A stretch of 41,967 nt of DNA from Pseudomonadota bacterium (GTDB lineage Bacteria; Pseudomonadota; Alphaproteobacteria; ATCC43930; CGMCC-115725), in assembly GCA_021812165.1 (NCBI GenBank), contig JAKAOO010000004.1, positions 1-41,967 on the forward strand, given 5' to 3'. A program made the translations under genes and the position numbers. Position 1 is the first letter of the stretch; the number at the start of each line of letters is the position of its first letter. Under the pieces are notes generated by a model, which worked only from the letters and a program-made list of their open reading frames with translations, made no database searches and was not told the DNA's origin. Shown in pieces: positions 1,561-36,444 of this stretch.

Positions 1561-2574
1561 ATGTCGAAAAAATCCTTCCGCGCGGCGGTCAACGAAGCCT
1601 TGGCGCAGGAGATGCGCCGCGATCCGACCGTCATCGTCATGGGCGAGGACAATGCCGGCGGCATGGGCGCGCCGGGCGCGGATGACGCCTGGGGCGGCGT
1701 TCTCGGCGTCACCAAGGGCCTCATGCCCGAATTCGGCCGCGAGCGGGTTCTCGACACCCCGATCAGCGAGAGCGCCTTTATCGGCGCGGCGGTCGGGGCG
1801 GCGGCTTGCGGCCTCCGGCCCGTCGCCGAACTGATGTTTGTCGATTTCCTGGGGGTCTGTTTCGACCAGATCTTCAACCAGGCGGCAAAGTTCCGTTACA
1901 TGTTCGGCGGCAAGGCCACAACCCCTGTCGTCATCCGCACCATGTACGGCGCGGGGCTTCGGGCGGCGAGCCAGCACAGCCAGTGCCTTTATCCGATCTT
2001 CACGCACATCCCGGGTTTGAAGGTCGTCATCCCATCTTCGCCTTACGAAGCGAAGGGCCTCCTCATCGAGGCGATCCGCGACGACGATCCCGTCATCTTC
2101 TTCGAGCACAAGCTCCTCTACGACGAGGAAGAGGAGGTGCCGGACGAGCCGTATCGCATCCCCTTTGGCGAAGCCAATGTGACGCGCGAAGGCGGCGACG
2201 TGACGATCGTCGCCTTGGGACGCATGGTGAAGCTTGCGGGCGAGGTTGCGGACAAGCTCTTGAAAGAAGGGATCGCCGCGACGGTCATCGATCCCCGGAC
2301 GACCTCGCCGCTCGATACCGCGAGCATCCTCGATTCTGTCCGGGAAACGGGGCGTCTCGTCGTCGTCGACGAGGCGAGTCCGCGTTGCAACCTTGCGACC
2401 GACATCGCGGCTTTTGCCACCGAAAACGCATTCGGAGCGCTGAAGGCGCCGATCCGCATGGTGAGCCCGCCGCACACGCCGGTTCCCTTCGCGCCCGAGC
2501 TCGAGGACCTCTACATGCCGGGTGCGAAAGAGATCGAGGCGGCGGTGCGCGCGGTCGCGGACTACGCGCACTGA
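1561..2574 (+). CDS. 2-oxoacid/acetoin dehydrogenase E1 component, beta subunit
   Basis: Transketolase-like pyrimidine and C-terminal domains; DTPISESAFIGAAVGAAACGLRPVAELMFVDF; 13 bp downstream of E1 alpha. Confidence 0.93.
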   Translation: MSKKSFRAAVNEALAQEMRRDPTVIVMGEDNAGGMGAPGADDAWGGVLGVTKGLMPEFGRERVLDTPISESAFIGAAVGAAACGLRPVAELMFVDFLGVCFDQIFNQAAKFRYMFGGKATTPVVIRTMYGAGLRAASQHSQCLYPIFTHIPGLKVVIPSSPYEAKGLLIEAIRDDDPVIFFEHKLLYDEEEEVPDEPYRIPFGEANVTREGGDVTIVALGRMVKLAGEVADKLLKEGIAATVIDPRTTSPLDTASILDSVRETGRLVVVDEASPRCNLATDIAAFATENAFGALKAPIRMVSPPHTPVPFAPELEDLYMPGAKEIEAAVRAVADYAH

Positions 2575-2649
2575 CGGGCGTGACAACGAGAGCGATCATC
2601 GCACGCGAACGTGGCCTGCCCCTTGGGCAAAGCCTGGTTCCTCGGCCGG

Positions 2650-2853
2650 ATGAAGCGGCGAACATTCTATTGGCTTGGGGGCGCGCTATACATCGTGCTG
2701 CAAATCGATTTCTGGATTGCGCCTTGGCCCTCTCACCTCGCTCTAGCTTCGCTGATCGGGTCCACTGTTCTGACATGGGGATACGTTGTCGACCTCATCG
2801 TTCAACGTCGGTCGGCCATCTGGCGCATGATCCAGCGCCTCAGAGGTCGTTAG
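2650..2853 (+). CDS. Small hypothetical membrane protein
   Basis: ORF MKRRTFYWLGGALYIVLQIDFW... with two hydrophobic stretches; start chosen at internal ATG of the 2611 ORF. Confidence 0.35.
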   Translation: MKRRTFYWLGGALYIVLQIDFWIAPWPSHLALASLIGSTVLTWGYVVDLIVQRRSAIWRMIQRLRGR

Positions 2854-2995
2854 CATGCTACGGCGTGAGCAGGTTTGACTTCCGCGGGTGGCCCGCCTAT
2901 TTTCGCGCGCAAAGCTCATTCCGCTGTTTGCGGAGGATCCGACACTCCTTCGTCATGGTCGGGCAAAGATCCGTGGGCCTTCAGCCGACGGACGT

Positions 2996-3081
2996 GCTCC
3001 GTGGGCATCCACGCCTTGGGACCGGCTCGATCGGCTGTCGTAGCGCGTGGATGCCCGGATCAAGTCCGGGCATGACGGAGT
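2996..3081. repeat. Intergenic palindromic (REP-like) repeat
   Basis: cgtgggcatccacg ... cgtggatgcccggatcaagtccgggcatgacgg; internal hairpin cccggatcaagtccggg. Confidence 0.6.
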
Positions 3082-3139
3082 AAGCAAGGTCTCGGGATAG
3101 CGGACCGATGGCATTGAGACTTACGAGGGAAAGCCGAAC

Positions 3140-3265
3140 GTGAAAATTGCCAACTCCTTGAAATCGCTTCGAAAGCGCGACAAGAACTCGAAGCTCGTGC
3201 GGCGCCGCGGCCGGGTTTATCTCATCAATAAGGTCAATCCGCGGTTCAAGGCGCGCCAAGGCTAG
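3140..3265 (+). CDS. rpmJ: 50S ribosomal protein L36, cysteine-free (YkgO-like) form, GTG start
   Basis: Translation from [44 protein letters not shown] (41 aa); full-length match to the L36 pattern without zinc-ligand Cys. Absent from the supplied ORF list. Confidence 0.93.
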
Positions 3266-3300
3266 CCGTGGAAGCCGAATGCATCGTTCCTGTCACCGCC

Positions 3301-3409
3301 AGATTGCTTCCCCCCGGAACGGCCCGCCCTTGGCGGACCGGCCGTCCGGGGGTCGCTCGCGATGACACCTTCGGCCGTCATTGCGAGGAGCGGCGCGACG
3401 AAGCAATCT
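3301..3409. repeat. Interspersed palindromic repeat, copy 1
   Basis: Terminal arms agattgcttc / gaagcaatct; inner gatgac...gtcattgcgagga; related to 25942-26084 and 28990-29061. Confidence 0.7.
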
Positions 3410-3471
3410 CGGTGAACGCGCCGCGGCAGCGAGCGCTGGGACGGGATCAGTAGAAAAAGGGGACCTCTGCG

Positions 3472-4959
3472 ATGCGGATGCCGGCTCCCGATGCCGCCGT
3501 CTTGCAGCGCCGCTCCGAGATCCTGCGGGCGCTCCAAAAAATCGTGCCCGGCGAAGGGGTCATCGTCTCCGAAGCGGAACGGCGGGCCTATGAAAGCGAC
3601 GGGCTCAGCGCCTATCGCGGACTGCCTCTCGCCGTCGTTCTGCCTTCGAACCTCGAACAAGTGAGAGCCGTTCTGCGCTATTGCCGGGAAGTGGGGGTGA
3701 AGGTCGTCCCGCGCGGCGCCGGCACCTCGCTTTCGGGGGGCGCCTTGCCGCTCTCCGACGGCATCCTCCTCGGCATGAGCAAGTTCAACCGCATCCTCGA
3801 GATCGATCTCGCAAATCGCTGCGTCGTCGCCGAGCCCGGGGTCACCAACCTCGCCATCACGGCCGCGGTCGAAGCGAAGGGCTTTTATTACGCGCCCGAC
3901 CCTTCGAGCCAGATCGCCTGCACGATCGGCGGCAACGTCGCGGAGAATTCGGGCGGCGTGCACTGCCTCAAATACGGGGTCACGACGAACAATCTCCTCG
4001 GCATCGAGATGGTGCTGATGGACGGCGAGGTCGTCCGTCTCGGCGGCAAGCACCTCGATGCGGGAGGCTACGACCTTTTGGGGGTGATGACCGGCTCGGA
4101 AGGGCTTTTGGGGATCGTCACCGAGGTGACGGTGCGCATCCTGCCGAAACCCGAGACGGCGCGCGCCCTCCTCATCGGGTTTCCCGAGATTGCCGCCGCC
4201 GGCGCCGCCGTCGCGGCGATCATCGCGGAGGGGATCGTCCCGGGCGGGATGGAAATGATGGACCGGCCGGCGACGAAAGCGGCCGAGGATTTCGTGCACG
4301 CCGGCTACCCGCTCGATGTCGAAGCGCTCCTCATCGTCGAACTCGACGGCGTTGCGGCCGAGGTCGATCATCTCCTCGGGGTCGTCGAAACAATCGCCCG
4401 CGAGAAGGGCGCCACGACCATCAAAAAAAGCCGCGACGACGCCGAACGCCTCCTTTTCTGGTCCGGGCGCAAGGCCGCCTTTCCCGCGGTCGGGCGCATC
4501 TCTCCCGATTACTACTGTATGGACGGCACGATCCCGCGCGGCCGGCTCGCGCAAGTTTTGACGCGGATCGGCGAACTCTCAAAGCGTCATGGGCTTGCCG
4601 TCGTCAATGTCTTTCATGCGGGCGACGGCAATCTCCATCCGCTCATCCTTTACGACGCCAACAAGGAGGGCGAGATCGAACGCGCCGAGGCCTTCGGCGC
4701 CGATATTCTGCGGCTTTGCGTCGAGGTGGGGGGCGTCTTGACGGGCGAGCACGGGGTCGGGGTCGAAAAACGCGATCTCATGGGGGCGATGTTCGACGAC
4801 AATGATCTCGCCCACCAGGAGCGCCTCAAATGCGCCTTCGACCCCGACGGGCTTTTGAACCCCGGCAAGATGTTCCCCGAGCTTCATCGCTGCGCCGAAC
4901 TCGGCCGCCTTCACGTCCATGCCGGCAAGCTCCCTCATCCCGACCTGCCGCGGTTCTGA
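3472..4959 (+). CDS. glcD: FAD-linked oxidase, glycolate oxidase GlcD-like
   Basis: FAD-binding motif VVPRGAGTSLSGGALP and C-terminal HAGDGNLHPLILYD / GEHGVGVEKR. Confidence 0.88.
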   Translation: MRMPAPDAAVLQRRSEILRALQKIVPGEGVIVSEAERRAYESDGLSAYRGLPLAVVLPSNLEQVRAVLRYCREVGVKVVPRGAGTSLSGGALPLSDGILLGMSKFNRILEIDLANRCVVAEPGVTNLAITAAVEAKGFYYAPDPSSQIACTIGGNVAENSGGVHCLKYGVTTNNLLGIEMVLMDGEVVRLGGKHLDAGGYDLLGVMTGSEGLLGIVTEVTVRILPKPETARALLIGFPEIAAAGAAVAAIIAEGIVPGGMEMMDRPATKAAEDFVHAGYPLDVEALLIVELDGVAAEVDHLLGVVETIAREKGATTIKKSRDDAERLLFWSGRKAAFPAVGRISPDYYCMDGTIPRGRLAQVLTRIGELSKRHGLAVVNVFHAGDGNLHPLILYDANKEGEIERAEAFGADILRLCVEVGGVLTGEHGVGVEKRDLMGAMFDDNDLAHQERLKCAFDPDGLLNPGKMFPELHRCAELGRLHVHAGKLPHPDLPRF

Positions 4960-29886: not shown

Positions 29887-30291
29887 ATGGCGAAGGAAGG
29901 GGTGCGTTCGGAAAGGCTCGCTCAGCCGAGCGGGCATTTCTCGCCGGCAATCGCGGTTGCGGCGAAAGGCCGGCTCGTCTTCATCTCGGGCATGACGGCG
30001 CGCGGCGGCGACGGCTCCATCGTCGGCCGCGGCGAGATCGAGGCGCAAACGCGCCAGGTCTGCGAAAACCTCAAGGCTGCGGTCGAGGCGGCGGGGGGTA
30101 GCCTCGCCGACATCTGCCGGGTCGACGTCTATGTGCGCAACATGGAGCATTTCGACGCGATCCACCGGGTGCGGCGCGCCTATTTCCCGGATCCTCCGCC
30201 GGCCTCGACAATGGTCGAGGTGACGAAGATGACTTCGCCCGACGCCCTCATCGAGATGAGCGCGATCGCGGTCGTTGGCGAGCGCGAATGA
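29887..30291 (+). CDS. RidA (YjgF/UK114) family protein
   Basis: [15 protein letters not shown]...[42 protein letters not shown]. Confidence 0.92.
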
Positions 30292-30560: not shown

Positions 30561-31361
30561 ATGAGCGCCAAGGATAGGCAGAGCATCGAAGCGGGAGAAA
30601 GCGAACGCCGGCGGATCCGCAACGGCGAACTCAAGGGTCCGACGGCGGGGCTTGCGCCCGGCAACGTGCAGGCGAACCTCGTCATCCTGCCGCAAGCGCT
30701 CGCCCACGATTTCCTGCGCTTTGCCCAGGCGAACCCGAAGCCCTGCCCGGTGCTCGCGGTCTCCGAACCCGGCGATCCGCGTCTGCCGAGCCTCGGCGAC
30801 GATCTCGATATCCGCACCGATCTGCCGCGCTACCGCGTCTGGCGGAAGGGCGAGCTCGTGGACGAGCCCTGCGATCTCAAAAGCGTCTGGCGCGAGGATC
30901 TCGTCAGCTTTGCGCTTGGCTGCTCCTTTTCGTTTGAAACCGCCCTGCTCGAAGAGGGGATCGAGCTTCGCCACATGACGTGCGGGTCGAACGTGCCGAT
31001 GTACCGGACCAGCATCCCCTGCACGCCGGCCGGTCCCTTTCACGGTCCTCTCGTCGTCTCGATGCGGCCCTTGCGGCCGGAGGATGCGATCCGCGCGATC
31101 CAGATCACCTCGCGTTTTCCCGCCGTTCACGGCGCGCCGGTGCATCTTGGCCTCCCCGAAATGATCGGCGTCAGAAACCTCGACAAGCCCGATTACGGGG
31201 ATGCGGTGCCGGTGCGCAGCGACGAGCTGCCGATCTTTTGGGCCTGCGGCGTCACCCCGCAAGCCGTCATCGCCACCGTCAAGCCCGAATTTTGCGTCAC
31301 CCACGCTCCGGGCTCGATGCTCGTCACCGATTTGCGCAATTCGAAGCTCGCGGCTCTTTGA
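30561..31361 (+). CDS. DUF1445 putative hydro-lyase / D-glutamate cyclase N-terminal-domain protein
   Basis: [96 protein letters not shown]. Confidence 0.9.
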
Positions 31362-31383
31362 TCTTATTCCGCATCCGAAGGAG

Positions 31384-32355
31384 ATGGAGAGCGCGCTCCC
31401 CCTCGTCGATCGCATCGAGCGTCTGATCGAGGTCGATGTCGGGCGCAACATGGGGGCGCTTTTCGCGGCGGCGAAGGGCGGGCTCAAAAGCGCCGCGTTG
31501 GCGCTCGCGGCGGCAAGGCCCGGGGCGGCAAGGCCCGGGGCGGCAAGGCCCGGGGTAGCAGGGTCCGGGGTAGCAGGGTCCGGAGCGGTCGGGATCCTCA
31601 CCGGATTTTTCGTCCCCGAAGGCGCGCCGCCGGCGGCCGAAACGGACGGCCCGGTCGGCGCCGCGCTTTTGGCAAGAGGCCTCGACTTGGTCGGCATCCG
31701 CTGCCGCCTCGCCACCGACGAACCGTGCCGCAGCGCCTGCGCCGCCGCTCTCGACGCGGCGGAGGCAAAGGCCGCGCTCGACATCGCGCCGTTGGGGCGG
31801 CCTCCTGACGCCGTCGTCGAAGCGTGGCGGGAAGCAGGCATCGAGTTTGCGATTTCCATCGAGCGCTGCGGGAAGGGCGCCGACGGGGCGCCGCACAATA
31901 TGCGCGGCCGCGATATCAGCGCGCACACGGCGCCGCTCGACGCGCTTTTTCTCGCCGGCCCCTGGGAGACGATCGGGATCGGCGACGGCGGCAACGAGAT
32001 CGGGATGGGAGCGCTGCCGCGCGACCTCGTCGCACGCCACGTCGTGGGCGGCAACGTCATCGCTTGCGCTACTGCGGCCAAGCACCTGATCGTCGCCGGG
32101 GTTTCGAATTGGGGCGCCTATGCGCTTTTGGGCGCGCTTGCGGCGCTGCGCGAGGAGTGGCGCCAAAGACTTCTCTCCTGCCTCGACGAAGCGCTCGACC
32201 AGAGGATCCTCGAGGCAACCGTGCGGCAAGGGCCCGCCGTCGACGGCGTCTCTCTCCAACAAAGGCTGACCGTCGACGGCCTGCCGCCCGCGCGCCATCA
32301 CCAGGTTCTTCGCTCCATTCGCGCGCTCGTCGAGGATGGCCGTGCGCGCTCATGA
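31384..32355 (+). CDS. DUF4392 / D-glutamate cyclase C-terminal-domain-like protein
   Basis: ILTGFFVPEGAPPAAETDGPVGAALLARGL; SIERCGKGADGAPHNMRGRDIS; GIGDGGNEIGMGAL; 22 bp downstream of DUF1445 gene. Confidence 0.85.
   Translation: MESALPLVDRIERLIEVDVGRNMGALFAAAKGGLKSAALALAAARPGAARPGAARPGVAGSGVAGSGAVGILTGFFVPEGAPPAAETDGPVGAALLARGLDLVGIRCRLATDEPCRSACAAALDAAEAKAALDIAPLGRPPDAVVEAWREAGIEFAISIERCGKGADGAPHNMRGRDISAHTAPLDALFLAGPWETIGIGDGGNEIGMGALPRDLVARHVVGGNVIACATAAKHLIVAGVSNWGAYALLGALAALREEWRQRLLSCLDEALDQRILEATVRQGPAVDGVSLQQRLTVDGLPPARHHQVLRSIRALVEDGRARS
31509..31583 (+). repeat. In-frame 15-bp tandem repeat within the DUF4392 gene
   Basis: 3 x ggcggcaaggcccgg followed by 2 x ggtagcagggtccgg, encoding (AARPG)/(VAGSG)-type repeats. 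Confidence 0.95.
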
Positions 32356-33670
32356 TTTCGTCTTTGCGGGTTACGCCTTCGATCAAGCGCCATCGTGCCT
32401 TTCCCTGCGCTATCGCTACGAAGGGGGGCCGAGCTTCGAAGAAAGGGTGTTTTTCGACTTTGCGGGCCGCGCCTTGTCGCCCCCGGAAGAGGAAGCGCTC
32501 GACCGCGTCTTTCGGCTGATCCTCCTCCTCTCGGGGGTCAGCTATTACAAGGCCTTTGCTCCGCAGAGACTGGTCTCTGAGGCGTTCCCGATCGATGCGC
32601 CGACGGCGGCTTTTGTCGAAAAGTTCTACCGGAAAGGCTTGGCCGAGTTCGCCTTCAAGAACGGAATTTCGCTCGCCGAGCGCCCCTCCTTCGAGACCGC
32701 GAGCCTCGAACCGCCGGCGCCGGTCTCCCTCGACCTGCCGCGTCGAAGCCTGGTGCCGGTTGGAGGCGGCAAGGATTCGATCGTGACGCTCGAATGCCTC
32801 AAAAAGGCGGGCGAGCCTCTCCTCCTTTTTGCGGTAGGCGATGCCGAACCGATCGCTGAGACCATCGCCGCCTCGGGGCTTCCTGCCGTTCGCGCCCGCC
32901 GCCGGCTCGATCCCGCGATTTTCGCTCTCAATCGAAAGGGCGCGATGAACGGCCATGTGCCGGTCACCGGGATCCTGTCGGGAATCGCGCTCGCCGCGGC
33001 CATTCTCAAAGGCGCCGACCGGGTCGTGATGGCGAACGAGCATTCGGCGAGCGCCGGCAACCTCGTGATCGACGGCGTCGAGATCAATCACCAGTTCAGC
33101 AAATCCTTCGAATTCGAAAGGGATTTCTCGAACTATATCGAGCGCGCGGTCGGAAAAGGGCTCGGTTATTTCTCGCTTTTGCGGCCGTTGTCCGAAATCG
33201 CGATCGCCGCGCGTTTTTCGCGCTTCCCCCAATATTTCGAGAAATTCCGGAGCTGCAACGCCGCCTTTCGGCAAGACCCGAAGGTGCGAGCGGAAGGGTG
33301 GTGCGGGAATTGCCCGAAGTGCCGGTTCGTCTTCCTGGCGCTCGCCCCCTTTCTCGCAAAGAGGGATCTCATCGCGATTTTCGGGCGCGATCTCTTGGCA
33401 GAGCCGGAACAGCTGGCGGGCTTTCGCGCCCTTTGCGGCCTCGGCGACTGGAAGCCCTTCGAATGCGTCGGCGAAGTCTCCGAAAGCGCCGCGGTCGTCG
33501 CCCATCTCGCGGCGCAAAAGGAATGGGAGAGCGAGCCCGTTTTGCGGGAATTGGCGGCTGATCTTCGTTCTTCCCGGCAGGAACTCGCCGATTTTTCGAG
33601 CCTCTTTCCGAACCGGCACCCCCATCGCGTGCCGGAAGCCTATCTTCAGATGCTTGATGCGTGCCGCTGA
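32336..33670 (+). CDS. murL: UDP-N-acetyl-alpha-D-muramoyl-L-alanyl-L-glutamate epimerase (MurL)-like
   Basis: PP-loop-like VGGGKDSIVTLE; AMNGHVPVTGILSGIALAAAIL; MANEHSASAGN; EINHQFSKSFEFE; WCGNCPKCRFVFLAL; located directly upstream of and overlapping a MurD-type ligase. Confidence 0.85.
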   Translation: MAVRAHDFVFAGYAFDQAPSCLSLRYRYEGGPSFEERVFFDFAGRALSPPEEEALDRVFRLILLLSGVSYYKAFAPQRLVSEAFPIDAPTAAFVEKFYRKGLAEFAFKNGISLAERPSFETASLEPPAPVSLDLPRRSLVPVGGGKDSIVTLECLKKAGEPLLLFAVGDAEPIAETIAASGLPAVRARRRLDPAIFALNRKGAMNGHVPVTGILSGIALAAAILKGADRVVMANEHSASAGNLVIDGVEINHQFSKSFEFERDFSNYIERAVGKGLGYFSLLRPLSEIAIAARFSRFPQYFEKFRSCNAAFRQDPKVRAEGWCGNCPKCRFVFLALAPFLAKRDLIAIFGRDLLAEPEQLAGFRALCGLGDWKPFECVGEVSESAAVVAHLAAQKEWESEPVLRELAADLRSSRQELADFSSLFPNRHPHRVPEAYLQMLDACR

Positions 33671-35003
33671 TCTCGGTTCGAAACGGGTGGCAATCTGGGG
33701 CCTCGGGCGCGAAGGGCAGGCAGCCATTCGTTTTTTGCGCCGGCATCACCCGGATCTGCCGCTGTTCCTTCTGGACGATGCCGAGGATCCTCGCCTCCTC
33801 GAAGGGATCGGCGGCGCGATCGAACCCTTTTTCGGAAAAGAGGCGATCGGCCGCGCACTTCCCCGGGTCGAGGTCATCGTCAAATCGCCGGGAGTGAGCC
33901 TCTACCGCCCGGAGATCGCGGCGGCTCGCGCGAGCGGCGTCAAGATCACATCCCTCCTCAATCTCTGGTTCGCCGAGCCGAGAAGGGCGGCGGCGATTTG
34001 CGTTACCGGCACGAAAGGCAAGAGCACGACGGCCTCCCTTCTCGCCCATCTTTTGACCGCAGAGGGCCGGAAGGTCGCGCTCGCCGGCAATATCGGCGTG
34101 GCGATCACCGATATCGAGCAGGAAGCAGTCGAATTCGTCGTCGTCGAGGTGTCGAGCTATCAAGCCGCCGATTTCACGGGAAAGCCCGATGTTGCGCTTT
34201 TGACCGCGCTCTTTCCGGAGCATCTCGATTGGCATGGCGGGCTCGAAAACTATTACCGCGACAAGCTTCGGCTTCTGGGACGGGCGCGCCCGCGGATTCT
34301 TCCTGCGTCGGCCCTCGCCATCGCCGCGCGGTTTCTTCCGCCCGCAGAGACGGGCGCGTGCGTTTTCGACGAAGAAGGCGCGCTCCACGCGCGCGACGGC
34401 GCAATTTTCGACGGCGCCACCCGCATCGGCGAGATCGCGAACGCCTATCTGCGCCGCCGCCACAACGCTTCGAACCTTTGCGCCGCGCTCGCCGCCTTGA
34501 AGCTTTACGGCGGCGATCTCGGGCGAGCGCTCGAAGCGACGGCCGACTTTGCGGGATTGCCGCACCGGCAGGAGGAGCTCGGTCTTGCGGGCGGCGTCCT
34601 TGCCGTAGACGACAGCATCTCGACGACGCCCGAATCGGCACTGGCGGCGCTCGAAGCGTATGAAGGGCGCGACATTACCGTGATTCTCGGCGGCCATGAC
34701 CGCGGCATCGATTATGGGAAGCTCGTCGAGGCGCTGCTGCGGGGAGCGGCGAGGAGGGCGATCTGCGTTGGCGAGGCCGGAAGGCGAATTTATGCCGAGG
34801 CGACGCGAGGCGGCGGGCGGCAAGAGGGCGCCCTCTTTTTCGAAGCCTCTTCCATGGCGGAAGCGGTGGCGCAGGCGAAGAACCTCACTGCGAAGGGCGG
34901 AGTGATCTTGCTCTCCCCGGCCGCGCCGAGCTATGGGCAATACCGCGATTTTATCGAACGCGGCCGGGATTTTGCGGTTCGGATCGGACTTCCTTGGCGA
35001 TGA
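33657..35003 (+). CDS. murD2: Mur ligase, MurD2-like (UDP-MurNAc-L-alanine--L-glutamate ligase candidate)
   Basis: ATP motif VTGTKGKSTTASLLAHLL; NASNLCAALAAL; LPHRQEELG; VDDSISTTPESALAAL and LSPAAPSYGQYRDFIERGRDF differ from canonical MurD DSKATN / LSPACASFD. Confidence 0.85.
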   Translation: MRAADLGSKRVAIWGLGREGQAAIRFLRRHHPDLPLFLLDDAEDPRLLEGIGGAIEPFFGKEAIGRALPRVEVIVKSPGVSLYRPEIAAARASGVKITSLLNLWFAEPRRAAAICVTGTKGKSTTASLLAHLLTAEGRKVALAGNIGVAITDIEQEAVEFVVVEVSSYQAADFTGKPDVALLTALFPEHLDWHGGLENYYRDKLRLLGRARPRILPASALAIAARFLPPAETGACVFDEEGALHARDGAIFDGATRIGEIANAYLRRRHNASNLCAALAALKLYGGDLGRALEATADFAGLPHRQEELGLAGGVLAVDDSISTTPESALAALEAYEGRDITVILGGHDRGIDYGKLVEALLRGAARRAICVGEAGRRIYAEATRGGGRQEGALFFEASSMAEAVAQAKNLTAKGGVILLSPAAPSYGQYRDFIERGRDFAVRIGLPWR

Positions 35004-35236
35004 CAAAGAGCCGCCGCCTCCTTTTTCTTCTTCTGCTCGCGGGATTGTCGGCCTCCTGTTCGAGCGCGCCGGCCATTCTCGTTCGAGGCGACGCGAAATC
35101 GGCCGATGTCGCCTATCGCGGCGACCTCGCGGCCGCCACCGCCATCGCCAGGCGGCATTGCGCCCGCTACCAGCGCGTTCCCCGGCTTCTCGGAGCCGAC
35201 ATCGGCACCGCCTATTTCAACTGCGTGAGGCCGTGA
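35000..35236 (+). CDS. Small putative lipoprotein
   Basis: MTKSRRLLFLLLLAGLSASCSSAP signal with lipobox-like Cys; ATGA overlap with murD2 stop. Confidence 0.65.
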   Translation: MTKSRRLLFLLLLAGLSASCSSAPAILVRGDAKSADVAYRGDLAAATAIARRHCARYQRVPRLLGADIGTAYFNCVRP

Positions 35237-36444
35237 AAAGAGGCGCCTCTTCTCTTTCGGCCTCCTGGGCCGTGCATCTGGCGCTTTTGTGGCTCGTGGG
35301 TGCGGATCTGCGCCTGACGATCCTCGCGGTGCCGCCCGTCCTGCCTTTGATCCACCGCGATCTTTCTTTGAGCGAAGCGGCGGTGGGCGCCCTTTCCGGC
35401 CTTCCGGTCTTGCTTTTTGGGCTCGCGGCGATCGCCGGATCGCTTTTGATCGCGCGTCTCGGCACCCGCCGCGCCATCATTTTGGGGCTCGTCGTCGTCG
35501 CCGCCGCGTCTTCGATGCGCGGTCTCGGCCCCTCGGTGCCGATGCTCTTCGCGGCGACGCTCGTGATGGGCGCCGGAGTTTCCGTTTTGCAGCCGGCTCT
35601 GCCCGCGCTCGTCGCCCTCTGGTTTGGCGATGCTCCCGGCTTTGCGACGGCCGTGTACGCCAACGGGCTTCTCGTCGGCGAGGCTCTGCCTGCGGCGTTG
35701 ACGATCCCTTTGGTGCTCCCTCTCGTCGGGGGAAGCTGGCCGGTGAGCTTTGTCGTCTGGGCCTTGCCCGTCGCCCTGAGCGCGCTCCTCTTCGCCGTTT
35801 CGACTTCCGAGGTCGCGAAGCCGGCCGGGCTCCCGAGGACGCGCTGGTGGCCGGATTGGAAGAGCCGCGCCACGTGGGAGCTTGGGCTGGCGATGGGCGG
35901 GAACGGCGGGCTTTATTTTTCGACGAACGCGTTCATCCCCGATTACCTGCATGCGATCGGGCGCCCGGAGCTTGTCGGGCCTGCCCTGAGCGCGCTCAAT
36001 CTCGCCCAGATGCCGGCTTCGCTCACGGCCTTTTTTGTGGTGCAGAGACTGTCGATCGGCAAATGGGGCTATGTCTTCCTGCCTCTCGTTTGCTTTTTCG
36101 GGATTGCCGCCCTTCTCGGCGCAAGCACGCCGGTCATCGTCGCCGGCGCCGGATTGACCGGCTTCTGCTGCTCTTTCACCATGATCTTGGTGCTCGCCTT
36201 GCCGCCGCAGATCGCCTCTGCGAACGAGGTCCATCGCCTTTCCGCAGGAATGTTCGGGATCGGCTATTCGCTCTCTTTTGCGATCCCGCTTTTGGGGGGC
36301 GCGATCTGGGACGCGACGGGCGTGCCCGCAAGCGCGTTTGCCGGCAGCGCGCTCGCCGCGGCAATCGCCGTCGGCGCCGGTCTCAGCCGCCGTCCGCTCA
36401 GCGCAGGCGCGCACCGCAAGCCCCTTCCGCCGATTGCCTCTTGA
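35233..36444 (+). CDS. MFS transporter (CynX/NimT-like)
   Basis: About 12 hydrophobic segments; GTG start overlapping the lipoprotein stop. Confidence 0.88.
   Translation: MKRGASSLSASWAVHLALLWLVGADLRLTILAVPPVLPLIHRDLSLSEAAVGALSGLPVLLFGLAAIAGSLLIARLGTRRAIILGLVVVAAASSMRGLGPSVPMLFAATLVMGAGVSVLQPALPALVALWFGDAPGFATAVYANGLLVGEALPAALTIPLVLPLVGGSWPVSFVVWALPVALSALLFAVSTSEVAKPAGLPRTRWWPDWKSRATWELGLAMGGNGGLYFSTNAFIPDYLHAIGRPELVGPALSALNLAQMPASLTAFFVVQRLSIGKWGYVFLPLVCFFGIAALLGASTPVIVAGAGLTGFCCSFTMILVLALPPQIASANEVHRLSAGMFGIGYSLSFAIPLLGGAIWDATGVPASAFAGSALAAAIAVGAGLSRRPLSAGAHRKPLPPIAS

What the first reader, a model, noticed from the sequence alone, without database searches (positions are those of the whole stretch)
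30561..36444. Operon linking D-glutamate cyclase modules to the MurL/MurD2 alternative peptidoglycan D-Glu pathway
Seen: DUF1445, DUF4392, MurL-like, MurD2-like, lipoprotein and MFS genes are all on + with a 22-bp gap or start/stop overlaps. Known: MurD2 adds L-Glu to UDP-MurNAc-L-Ala and MurL epimerises the terminal Glu (shown in Xanthomonas), so free D-Glu and MurI are not needed. DUF1445/DUF4392 are the two halves of mammalian D-glutamate cyclase (D-Glu to 5-oxo-D-proline). Inference: if the cell cannot reuse free D-Glu through MurD, D-Glu released by wall turnover or taken up must be removed, so a cyclase would be a natural partner. I know of no description of this combined unit.
Basis: partly seen in the sequence, partly recalled or inferred. 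Interest (0 to 1): 0.88.

Follow-up and report, generated by a model that had tools for sequence, protein, structure and literature searches.

The report
D-glutamate disposal genes beside D-Glu-free wall synthesis
A group of uncultured Alphaproteobacteria appears to build its cell wall without free D-glutamate, and in all nine species examined the genes for a likely D-glutamate-destroying enzyme are joined to the wall genes, which suggests that such bacteria must actively clear D-glutamate they cannot reuse.

Summary
At 30561-35236 (+) lie DUF1445, DUF4392, MurL, MurD2 and a small lipoprotein, with one 22-nt gap and otherwise overlaps. MurD2 carries the L-Glu residue signature. The genome (95.9% complete) has no detected MurI, D-amino-acid transaminase or canonical MurD: murD is missing from its dcw slot between mraY and ftsW.

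The unit is not unique to this contig. All nine species of the genus have it in the same order on varied flanks, with coupled overlaps (MurL 56-71% identical). None of 30 other genomes of the family has MurL or DUF4392. The linkage to DUF4392 is confined to this genus; 17 MurL genomes from other taxa lack DUF4392.

Independent context supports 'D-Glu disposal'. Pseudoalteromonas has GH3-DUF1445-PxpA(5-oxoprolinase)-DUF4392-Dat-like operons. In the sister MurL clade, MurL-MurD2 sits in dcw behind DgcA (N-acetyl-D-Glu racemase) or beside DadA-like oxidoreductases. The window's genus lacks DgcA.

Cyclase activity itself is untested, most MurL loci elsewhere show no such neighbour, and the MFS gene is not conserved. 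I file it as a new variant of a known pathway: MurL/MurD2 plus a probable built-in D-Glu sink.

The parts
30561..31361 (+). DUF1445 / D-Glu_cyclase family protein (266 aa), N-terminal half of the vertebrate D-glutamate cyclase
   Evidence: PF07286 218.6 bits, NF003969 418 bits; PDB relatives 3db9 and 2pif; 76-82% identical in eight sister species
31384..32355 (+). DUF4392 / GLUCM-like_C protein (323 aa), C-terminal half of the vertebrate D-glutamate cyclase
   Evidence: PF14336 233 bits; aligns to TON_0340, with E59, D61, D157 and E161 equivalents kept as E86, D88, D201 and E205
32336..33670 (+). [quoted passage not shown]
   Evidence: NF041275 456 bits full length; 44% identical to annotated Xanthomonas sacchari MurL; model pLDDT 94.7 with QueC-like PP-loop core
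33657..35003 (+). [quoted passage not shown]
   Evidence: TIGR01087 297 bits; E188 and R349 match Xanthomonas MurD2 E197/R358 instead of E. coli D182/K348; P424 and I321 also follow Xanthomonas
34994..35236 (+). small lipoprotein-like protein, no known family
   Evidence: no Pfam/NCBIfam match; homologues of 45-47% identity close behind MurD2 in six sister loci
35233..36444 (+). CynX/NimT-type MFS transporter, overlapping the lipoprotein stop; not conserved in the unit
   Evidence: PF07690 67 bits, TIGR00896 132 bits, the latter below cut-off; not found in sister loci
29887..30291 (+). RidA-family protein upstream; absent from the sister loci fetched, probably not part of the unit
   Evidence: PF01042 91 bits; no homologue in L039-L047

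Best explanation
This is an operon for peptidoglycan D-Glu made without free D-Glu, joined to a sink for free D-Glu. [quoted passage not shown] Because MurD2 disfavours D-Glu and no MurI, Dat or DgcA was found in the genome, D-Glu released by wall turnover or taken up cannot be reused directly. DUF1445 and DUF4392 together would convert it to 5-oxo-D-proline, as the fused vertebrate enzyme does (inferred). The genes overlap, so the sink is probably made together with the wall enzymes.
For: No MurI; only one murD-level gene, the window's; dcw runs murF-mraY-ftsW-murG-murC with murD missing; Dat best hit 110 bits, the BCAT level, against 220-282 bits in most other genera. MurD2 residues. Order kept in 9/9 species on different flanks, with coupled overlaps; MurL and DUF4392 each 9/9 in the genus and 0/30 in the rest of the family. 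Purifying selection on all four genes. Function of the pair: Pseudoalteromonas operons GH3-DUF1445-PxpA-DUF4392-class IV aminotransferase, the last with a best match to D-amino-acid transaminase, and the mammalian enzyme (PMC5339696). Convergence: DgcA directly before MurL in dcw, DadA-like genes beside MurL/MurD2, in other lineages; DgcA in 5/12 MurL+ versus 0/21 MurL- genomes of that order. The genus lacks DgcA, which many relatives have. D-Glu can inhibit bacterial growth (PMC12502697).
Against: No bacterial DUF1445/DUF4392 has been assayed as a cyclase in anything I could read; the archaeal DUF4392 protein TON_0340 showed only weak Mn-dependent phosphatase activity (PMC5132392). The pairing is one evolutionary event in one genus, so 9/9 is not nine independent observations. 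In the class sample MurL and DUF4392 co-occur only in this genome, no more than chance. Most other MurL loci, Xanthomonas included, have no D-Glu gene next door. Three of the nine species keep a Dat-level gene. 5-oxoprolinase and D-Glu-releasing enzymes were not searched in this genome.
Confidence: 0.62

Rival explanations
1. The MurL/MurD2 pathway is real, but the DUF1445/DUF4392 pair acts on something else, for example a side product of MurL's carboxyl activation or a phosphorylated or adenylated small molecule, and is coupled to MurL as a repair or clean-up enzyme.
For: The pair is translationally coupled to MurL itself. TON_0340 is a weak Mn-dependent phosphatase best on AMP (PMC5132392), and MurL is reported to release AMP (PMC8788868); its model has a QueC-like PP-loop core.
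Against: TON_0340 turnover of AMP is very low. DUF1445 and DUF4392 occur together without MurL, next to 5-oxoprolinase and a Dat-like gene. Other MurL bacteria lack DUF4392.
Confidence: 0.15
2. The cyclase pair serves catabolism of external D-Glu or 5-oxoproline, and sits beside MurL only because the genes arrived together or landed there by chance.
For: DUF4392 elsewhere lies in amino-acid uptake and catabolic clusters without MurL and near hydantoinase/oxoprolinase genes.
Against: Order and overlaps persist across nine species while the flanking genes have changed. MurL's nearest relatives outside the genus lie in a different order, and none of their MurL loci held DUF4392, so the block was probably not imported whole.
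Confidence: 0.18
3. The pair works in reverse, supplying D-Glu from 5-oxo-D-proline for the cell wall.
For: No other known D-Glu source was found in the genome.
Against: MurD2 carries the L-Glu signature and MurL makes free D-Glu unnecessary; in mice, loss of the enzyme raises D-Glu (PMC5339696).
Confidence: 0.03

Closest known systems
MurD2/MurL pathway of Xanthomonas oryzae, Micromonospora and Salinispora (PMC8788868)
   Same: Two adjacent genes, MurL then MurD2, L-Glu signature residues, no MurI or D-amino-acid transaminase
   Different: Here the pair is preceded by, and overlaps, a DUF1445-DUF4392 pair; the Xanthomonas sacchari locus has no such gene
Vertebrate D-glutamate cyclase DGLUCY / 9030617O03Rik (PMC5339696)
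   Same: Same two families, DUF1445 and DUF4392
   Different: Two separate bacterial proteins, not fused; activity not tested; operonic with wall synthesis
Pseudoalteromonas GH3-DUF1445-PxpA-DUF4392-aminotransferase operon
   Same: DUF1445 (58-62% identical to the genus) and DUF4392 (about 30-36%) in one operon
   Different: Tied to 5-oxoprolinase and a Dat-like gene, not to MurL/MurD2
dcw clusters with mraY-DgcA-MurL-MurD2-ftsW in another alphaproteobacterial order (L140, L142, L150/L151)
   Same: MurL/MurD2 of the sister clade, with a D-Glu or L-Ala-D-Glu converting gene directly in front
   Different: Different enzyme (enolase-superfamily DgcA, sometimes with a DadA-like gene) and located inside dcw

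Membership tests
MurL | Full-length match to the MurL family model | tested here: met
   NF041275 456 bits, 7e-137, positions 8-445/447; below the curated cut-off of 700 tuned on Xanthomonadales; none of the 17 MurL genomes sampled in the class reaches 700 either
MurL | Adjacent MurD2 and absence of MurI/Dat | tested here: met
[quoted passage not shown]
   Model shows a QueC-like PP-loop core and four invariant Cys, consistent with AMP-forming activation
MurD2 | Glu and Arg at the positions of E. coli D182 and K348, which set L-Glu specificity | tested here: met
   E188 and R349; also P424 and I321 as in Xanthomonas
MurD2 | Ligation of L-Glu instead of D-Glu | not testable with these tools
   needs an enzyme assay
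Canonical MurI/MurD route | MurI or Dat present, with murD in dcw | tested here: not met
D-glutamate cyclase (DGLUCY type) | Both DUF1445 and DUF4392 present | tested here: met
D-glutamate cyclase (DGLUCY type) | Metal-binding acidic residues of DUF4392 kept | tested here: met
   E86, D88, D201 and E205 invariant in 14 sequences and aligned to TON_0340; not all six positions were mapped on the structure
D-glutamate cyclase (DGLUCY type) | Conversion of D-Glu to 5-oxo-D-proline | not testable with these tools
   Context only: PxpA and Dat-like genes in Pseudoalteromonas operons

The most novel reading that the evidence does not exclude
Bacteria that switched to the D-Glu-free MurL/MurD2 route have repeatedly attached a D-Glu-clearing enzyme to it: D-Glu cyclase in this genus, DgcA-type racemase/epimerase and DadA-type oxidoreductases elsewhere. 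D-Glu clearance would then be a general requirement of the alternative wall pathway.
Probability: 0.4. Interest if true: 0.78.

Novelty: new variant of a known kind. Interest (0 to 1): 0.64.

Why it matters
The MurL/MurD2 route has been studied as a way to make wall D-Glu, but what the cell then does with free D-Glu has not been asked in anything I found. This locus, kept in a whole genus, gives a directly testable answer. It would also tie bacterial DUF1445/DUF4392, still annotated as 'putative hydro-lyase', to D-Glu and wall turnover.

Tried and rejected
The Asp/Glu-racemase-family hits in the genome were considered as possible MurI and rejected: TIGR00067 gave no candidate at all. A class-wide link between MurL and DUF4392 was looked for and not found (Fisher p 0.37). 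The flavin amine oxidase next to MurD2 in four Beijerinckiaceae/Hyphomicrobiales loci was set aside because it is convergent. DUF1445 beside DUF4392 in other Alphaproteobacteria was looked for and not found within the stretches fetched. The Xanthomonas and Pseudonocardia loci showed no D-Glu gene. MurL itself has no solved relative by sequence.

Full report
Observation. The ORFs at 30561-36444 are as described. Families: PF07286 (DUF1445), PF14336 (DUF4392), NF041275 (MurL), TIGR01087 (MurD), a lipoprotein-like 80-aa protein without a family, and a CynX-like MFS protein. The gap is 22 nt, then overlaps of 20, 14 and 10 nt.

Pathway in this genome. The window lies in a 3.66-Mb, 312-contig genome, 95.9% complete. 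TIGR00067 (MurI) gives no candidate. The only hit above the murD cut-off is the window's gene; the others are below it and read as MurC, MurF and MurE of the dcw contigs. The dcw cluster on C52 and C84 reads mraZ-rsmH-ftsL-ftsI-murE-murF and murF-mraY-ftsW-murG-murC: murD is missing between mraY (3621-4709) and ftsW (2345-3463) (gene names beyond the Mur hits are read from the sequences by eye). The best D-amino-acid transaminase hit is 110 bits, a level that many relatives also have beside a 220-282-bit gene. So the known routes to D-Glu were not found, as in Xanthomonas (PMC8788868).

MurD2 identity. In the alignment with E. coli MurD and Xanthomonas sacchari MurD2, the window protein has E188 and R349 where E. 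coli (numbering without Met) has D182 and K348. These are the two residues whose exchange switched Xanthomonas MurD2 to D-Glu (PMC8788868). P424 and I321 also follow Xanthomonas; the fourth compared position is Tyr where Xanthomonas has Phe.

MurL. It matches NF041275 end to end and is 44% identical to the annotated Xanthomonas sacchari MurL. Its AlphaFold2 model (pLDDT 94.7) best matches QatC and QueC (E about 1e-5), with Cap9 at E 0.01: a PP-loop core, with four invariant cysteines C307, C323, C326 and C329 in the alignment. That fits the reported ATP to AMP chemistry; the step from fold to mechanism is inference.

The conserved unit. All nine genomes of the genus have MurL, and none of the other 30 genomes of the family does; DUF4392 shows exactly the same pattern. 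In all nine species DUF1445-DUF4392-MurL stand in that order on one strand. MurD2 follows directly in seven; in G007 the locus is split over two contigs that fit the same order, and G004's contig ends inside MurL. MurL overlaps MurD2 by exactly 14 nt in all seven species measured, and DUF4392 overlaps MurL by 11 nt in most. The flanks differ between species. A lipoprotein of 45-47% identity follows in six sister loci; the MFS gene does not. dN/dS is about 0.17 to 0.22 for the four genes between the window and its nearest relative. The 9/9 versus 0/30 pattern is one evolutionary event and must not be read as nine independent ones.

Limits of the link. In 385 genomes of the class, MurL occurs in 17 and DUF4392 in 10, together only here. 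Seventeen MurL genomes from other taxa have no DUF4392 (the eighteenth, L011, is a member of the same genus unit). In the MurL tree the genus is one clade (SH-aLRT 100) and sister to MurL of another alphaproteobacterial order (99).

What the pair may do. In mice the two-domain protein turns D-Glu into 5-oxo-D-proline, and its loss raises D-Glu (PMC5339696). In three Pseudoalteromonas replicons the order is GH3 (beta-N-acetylhexosaminidase-like)-DUF1445-PxpA-DUF4392-class IV aminotransferase; in the one scanned, the last best matches D-amino-acid transaminase, below its cut-off. In Bacillus subtilis ycsI lies in the pxpABC operon (PMC10448178; that YcsI is DUF1445 is from memory). This context points to D-Glu, 5-oxoproline and perhaps wall turnover. 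TON_0340, a DUF4392 protein, shows only weak phosphatase activity (PMC5132392), so the catalytic role of each half is open.

Convergent neighbours. In the sister clade, L140, L142 and L150/L151 show mraY-DgcA-MurL and MurL-MurD2-ftsW inside dcw. The DgcA proteins score 457, 464 and 489 bits against a cut-off of 400; they could also act as L-Ala-D/L-Glu epimerases. L150 adds a DadA-like gene between mraY and DgcA. L120 has a DadA-like gene behind MurD2 and L019 (Parvularculaceae) one in front of MurL; these DadA-like proteins are 48-55% identical to each other and match the DadA subfamily below its cut-off. L023/L024 (Solirubrobacterales) have a divergent DAO-family gene. That is 7 of about 43 MurL genomes looked at outside the genus, some with short flanks; no background rate was measured. 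In the order concerned DgcA is found in 5 of 12 MurL genomes and 0 of 21 others (Fisher p 0.003, not corrected for kinship). In the window's own family many relatives have DgcA, but the nine genomes of the genus do not (best 62 bits).

Reading. Cells that wire L-Glu into the wall precursor cannot recycle free D-Glu directly; a sink next to MurL/MurD2 makes sense, and high D-Glu is reported to inhibit growth in other bacteria (PMC12502697). The pathway assignment is strong, the cyclase assignment moderate, and the physiological reason inference. I found no paper that describes the combination in the library searched; subscription journals are mostly missing from it.

Cautions. The genus is known here from fragmented genomes of 77-98% completeness, so absences in single species are weak, though they agree across nine. 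Three species keep Dat-level genes, so D-Glu may still be made there.

Noticed in passing
window:32336-33670 (MurL) and alignment A1: MurL's predicted fold has a QueC/QatC/Cap9-like PP-loop core and four invariant cysteines, which suggests a QueC-type carboxylate-adenylating origin for an enzyme described in 2021 as lacking known domains.
   Followed up: partly
L189 and hits H10-H12 (Pseudonocardia plasmids): Pseudonocardia plasmids carry a MurL homologue of 36-37% identity; in the one inspected there is no annotated MurD2 beside it and a large WD40-repeat gene overlaps on the other strand; role unknown.
   Followed up: no
L140, L142, L150/L151: MurL-MurD2 occupies the murD position inside the dcw cluster, with DgcA and once a DadA-like gene inserted after mraY.
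   Followed up: partly
L131 and L133 (G464:C145:838-2181, G461:C38:1702-3030): Two MurL genes of one genus are reported with a TGA inside the match.
   Followed up: no
window:31510-31590: The window's DUF4392 has a private low-complexity insert of short tandem repeats (ARPGA/VAGSG) absent from sister species.
   Followed up: no
L110:4102-13296: Two tandem DUF4392 domains in one frame lie between hydantoinase/oxoprolinase-type genes in another alphaproteobacterium.
   Followed up: partly
L016, L017, L026, L028: A flavin amine oxidase gene lies convergent to MurD2 in four Beijerinckiaceae/Hyphomicrobiales loci.
   Followed up: no
window:17131-17844: Arylmalonate-decarboxylase/Asp-Glu-racemase family gene in front of ABC-transporter-like genes; not MurI.
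   Followed up: partly
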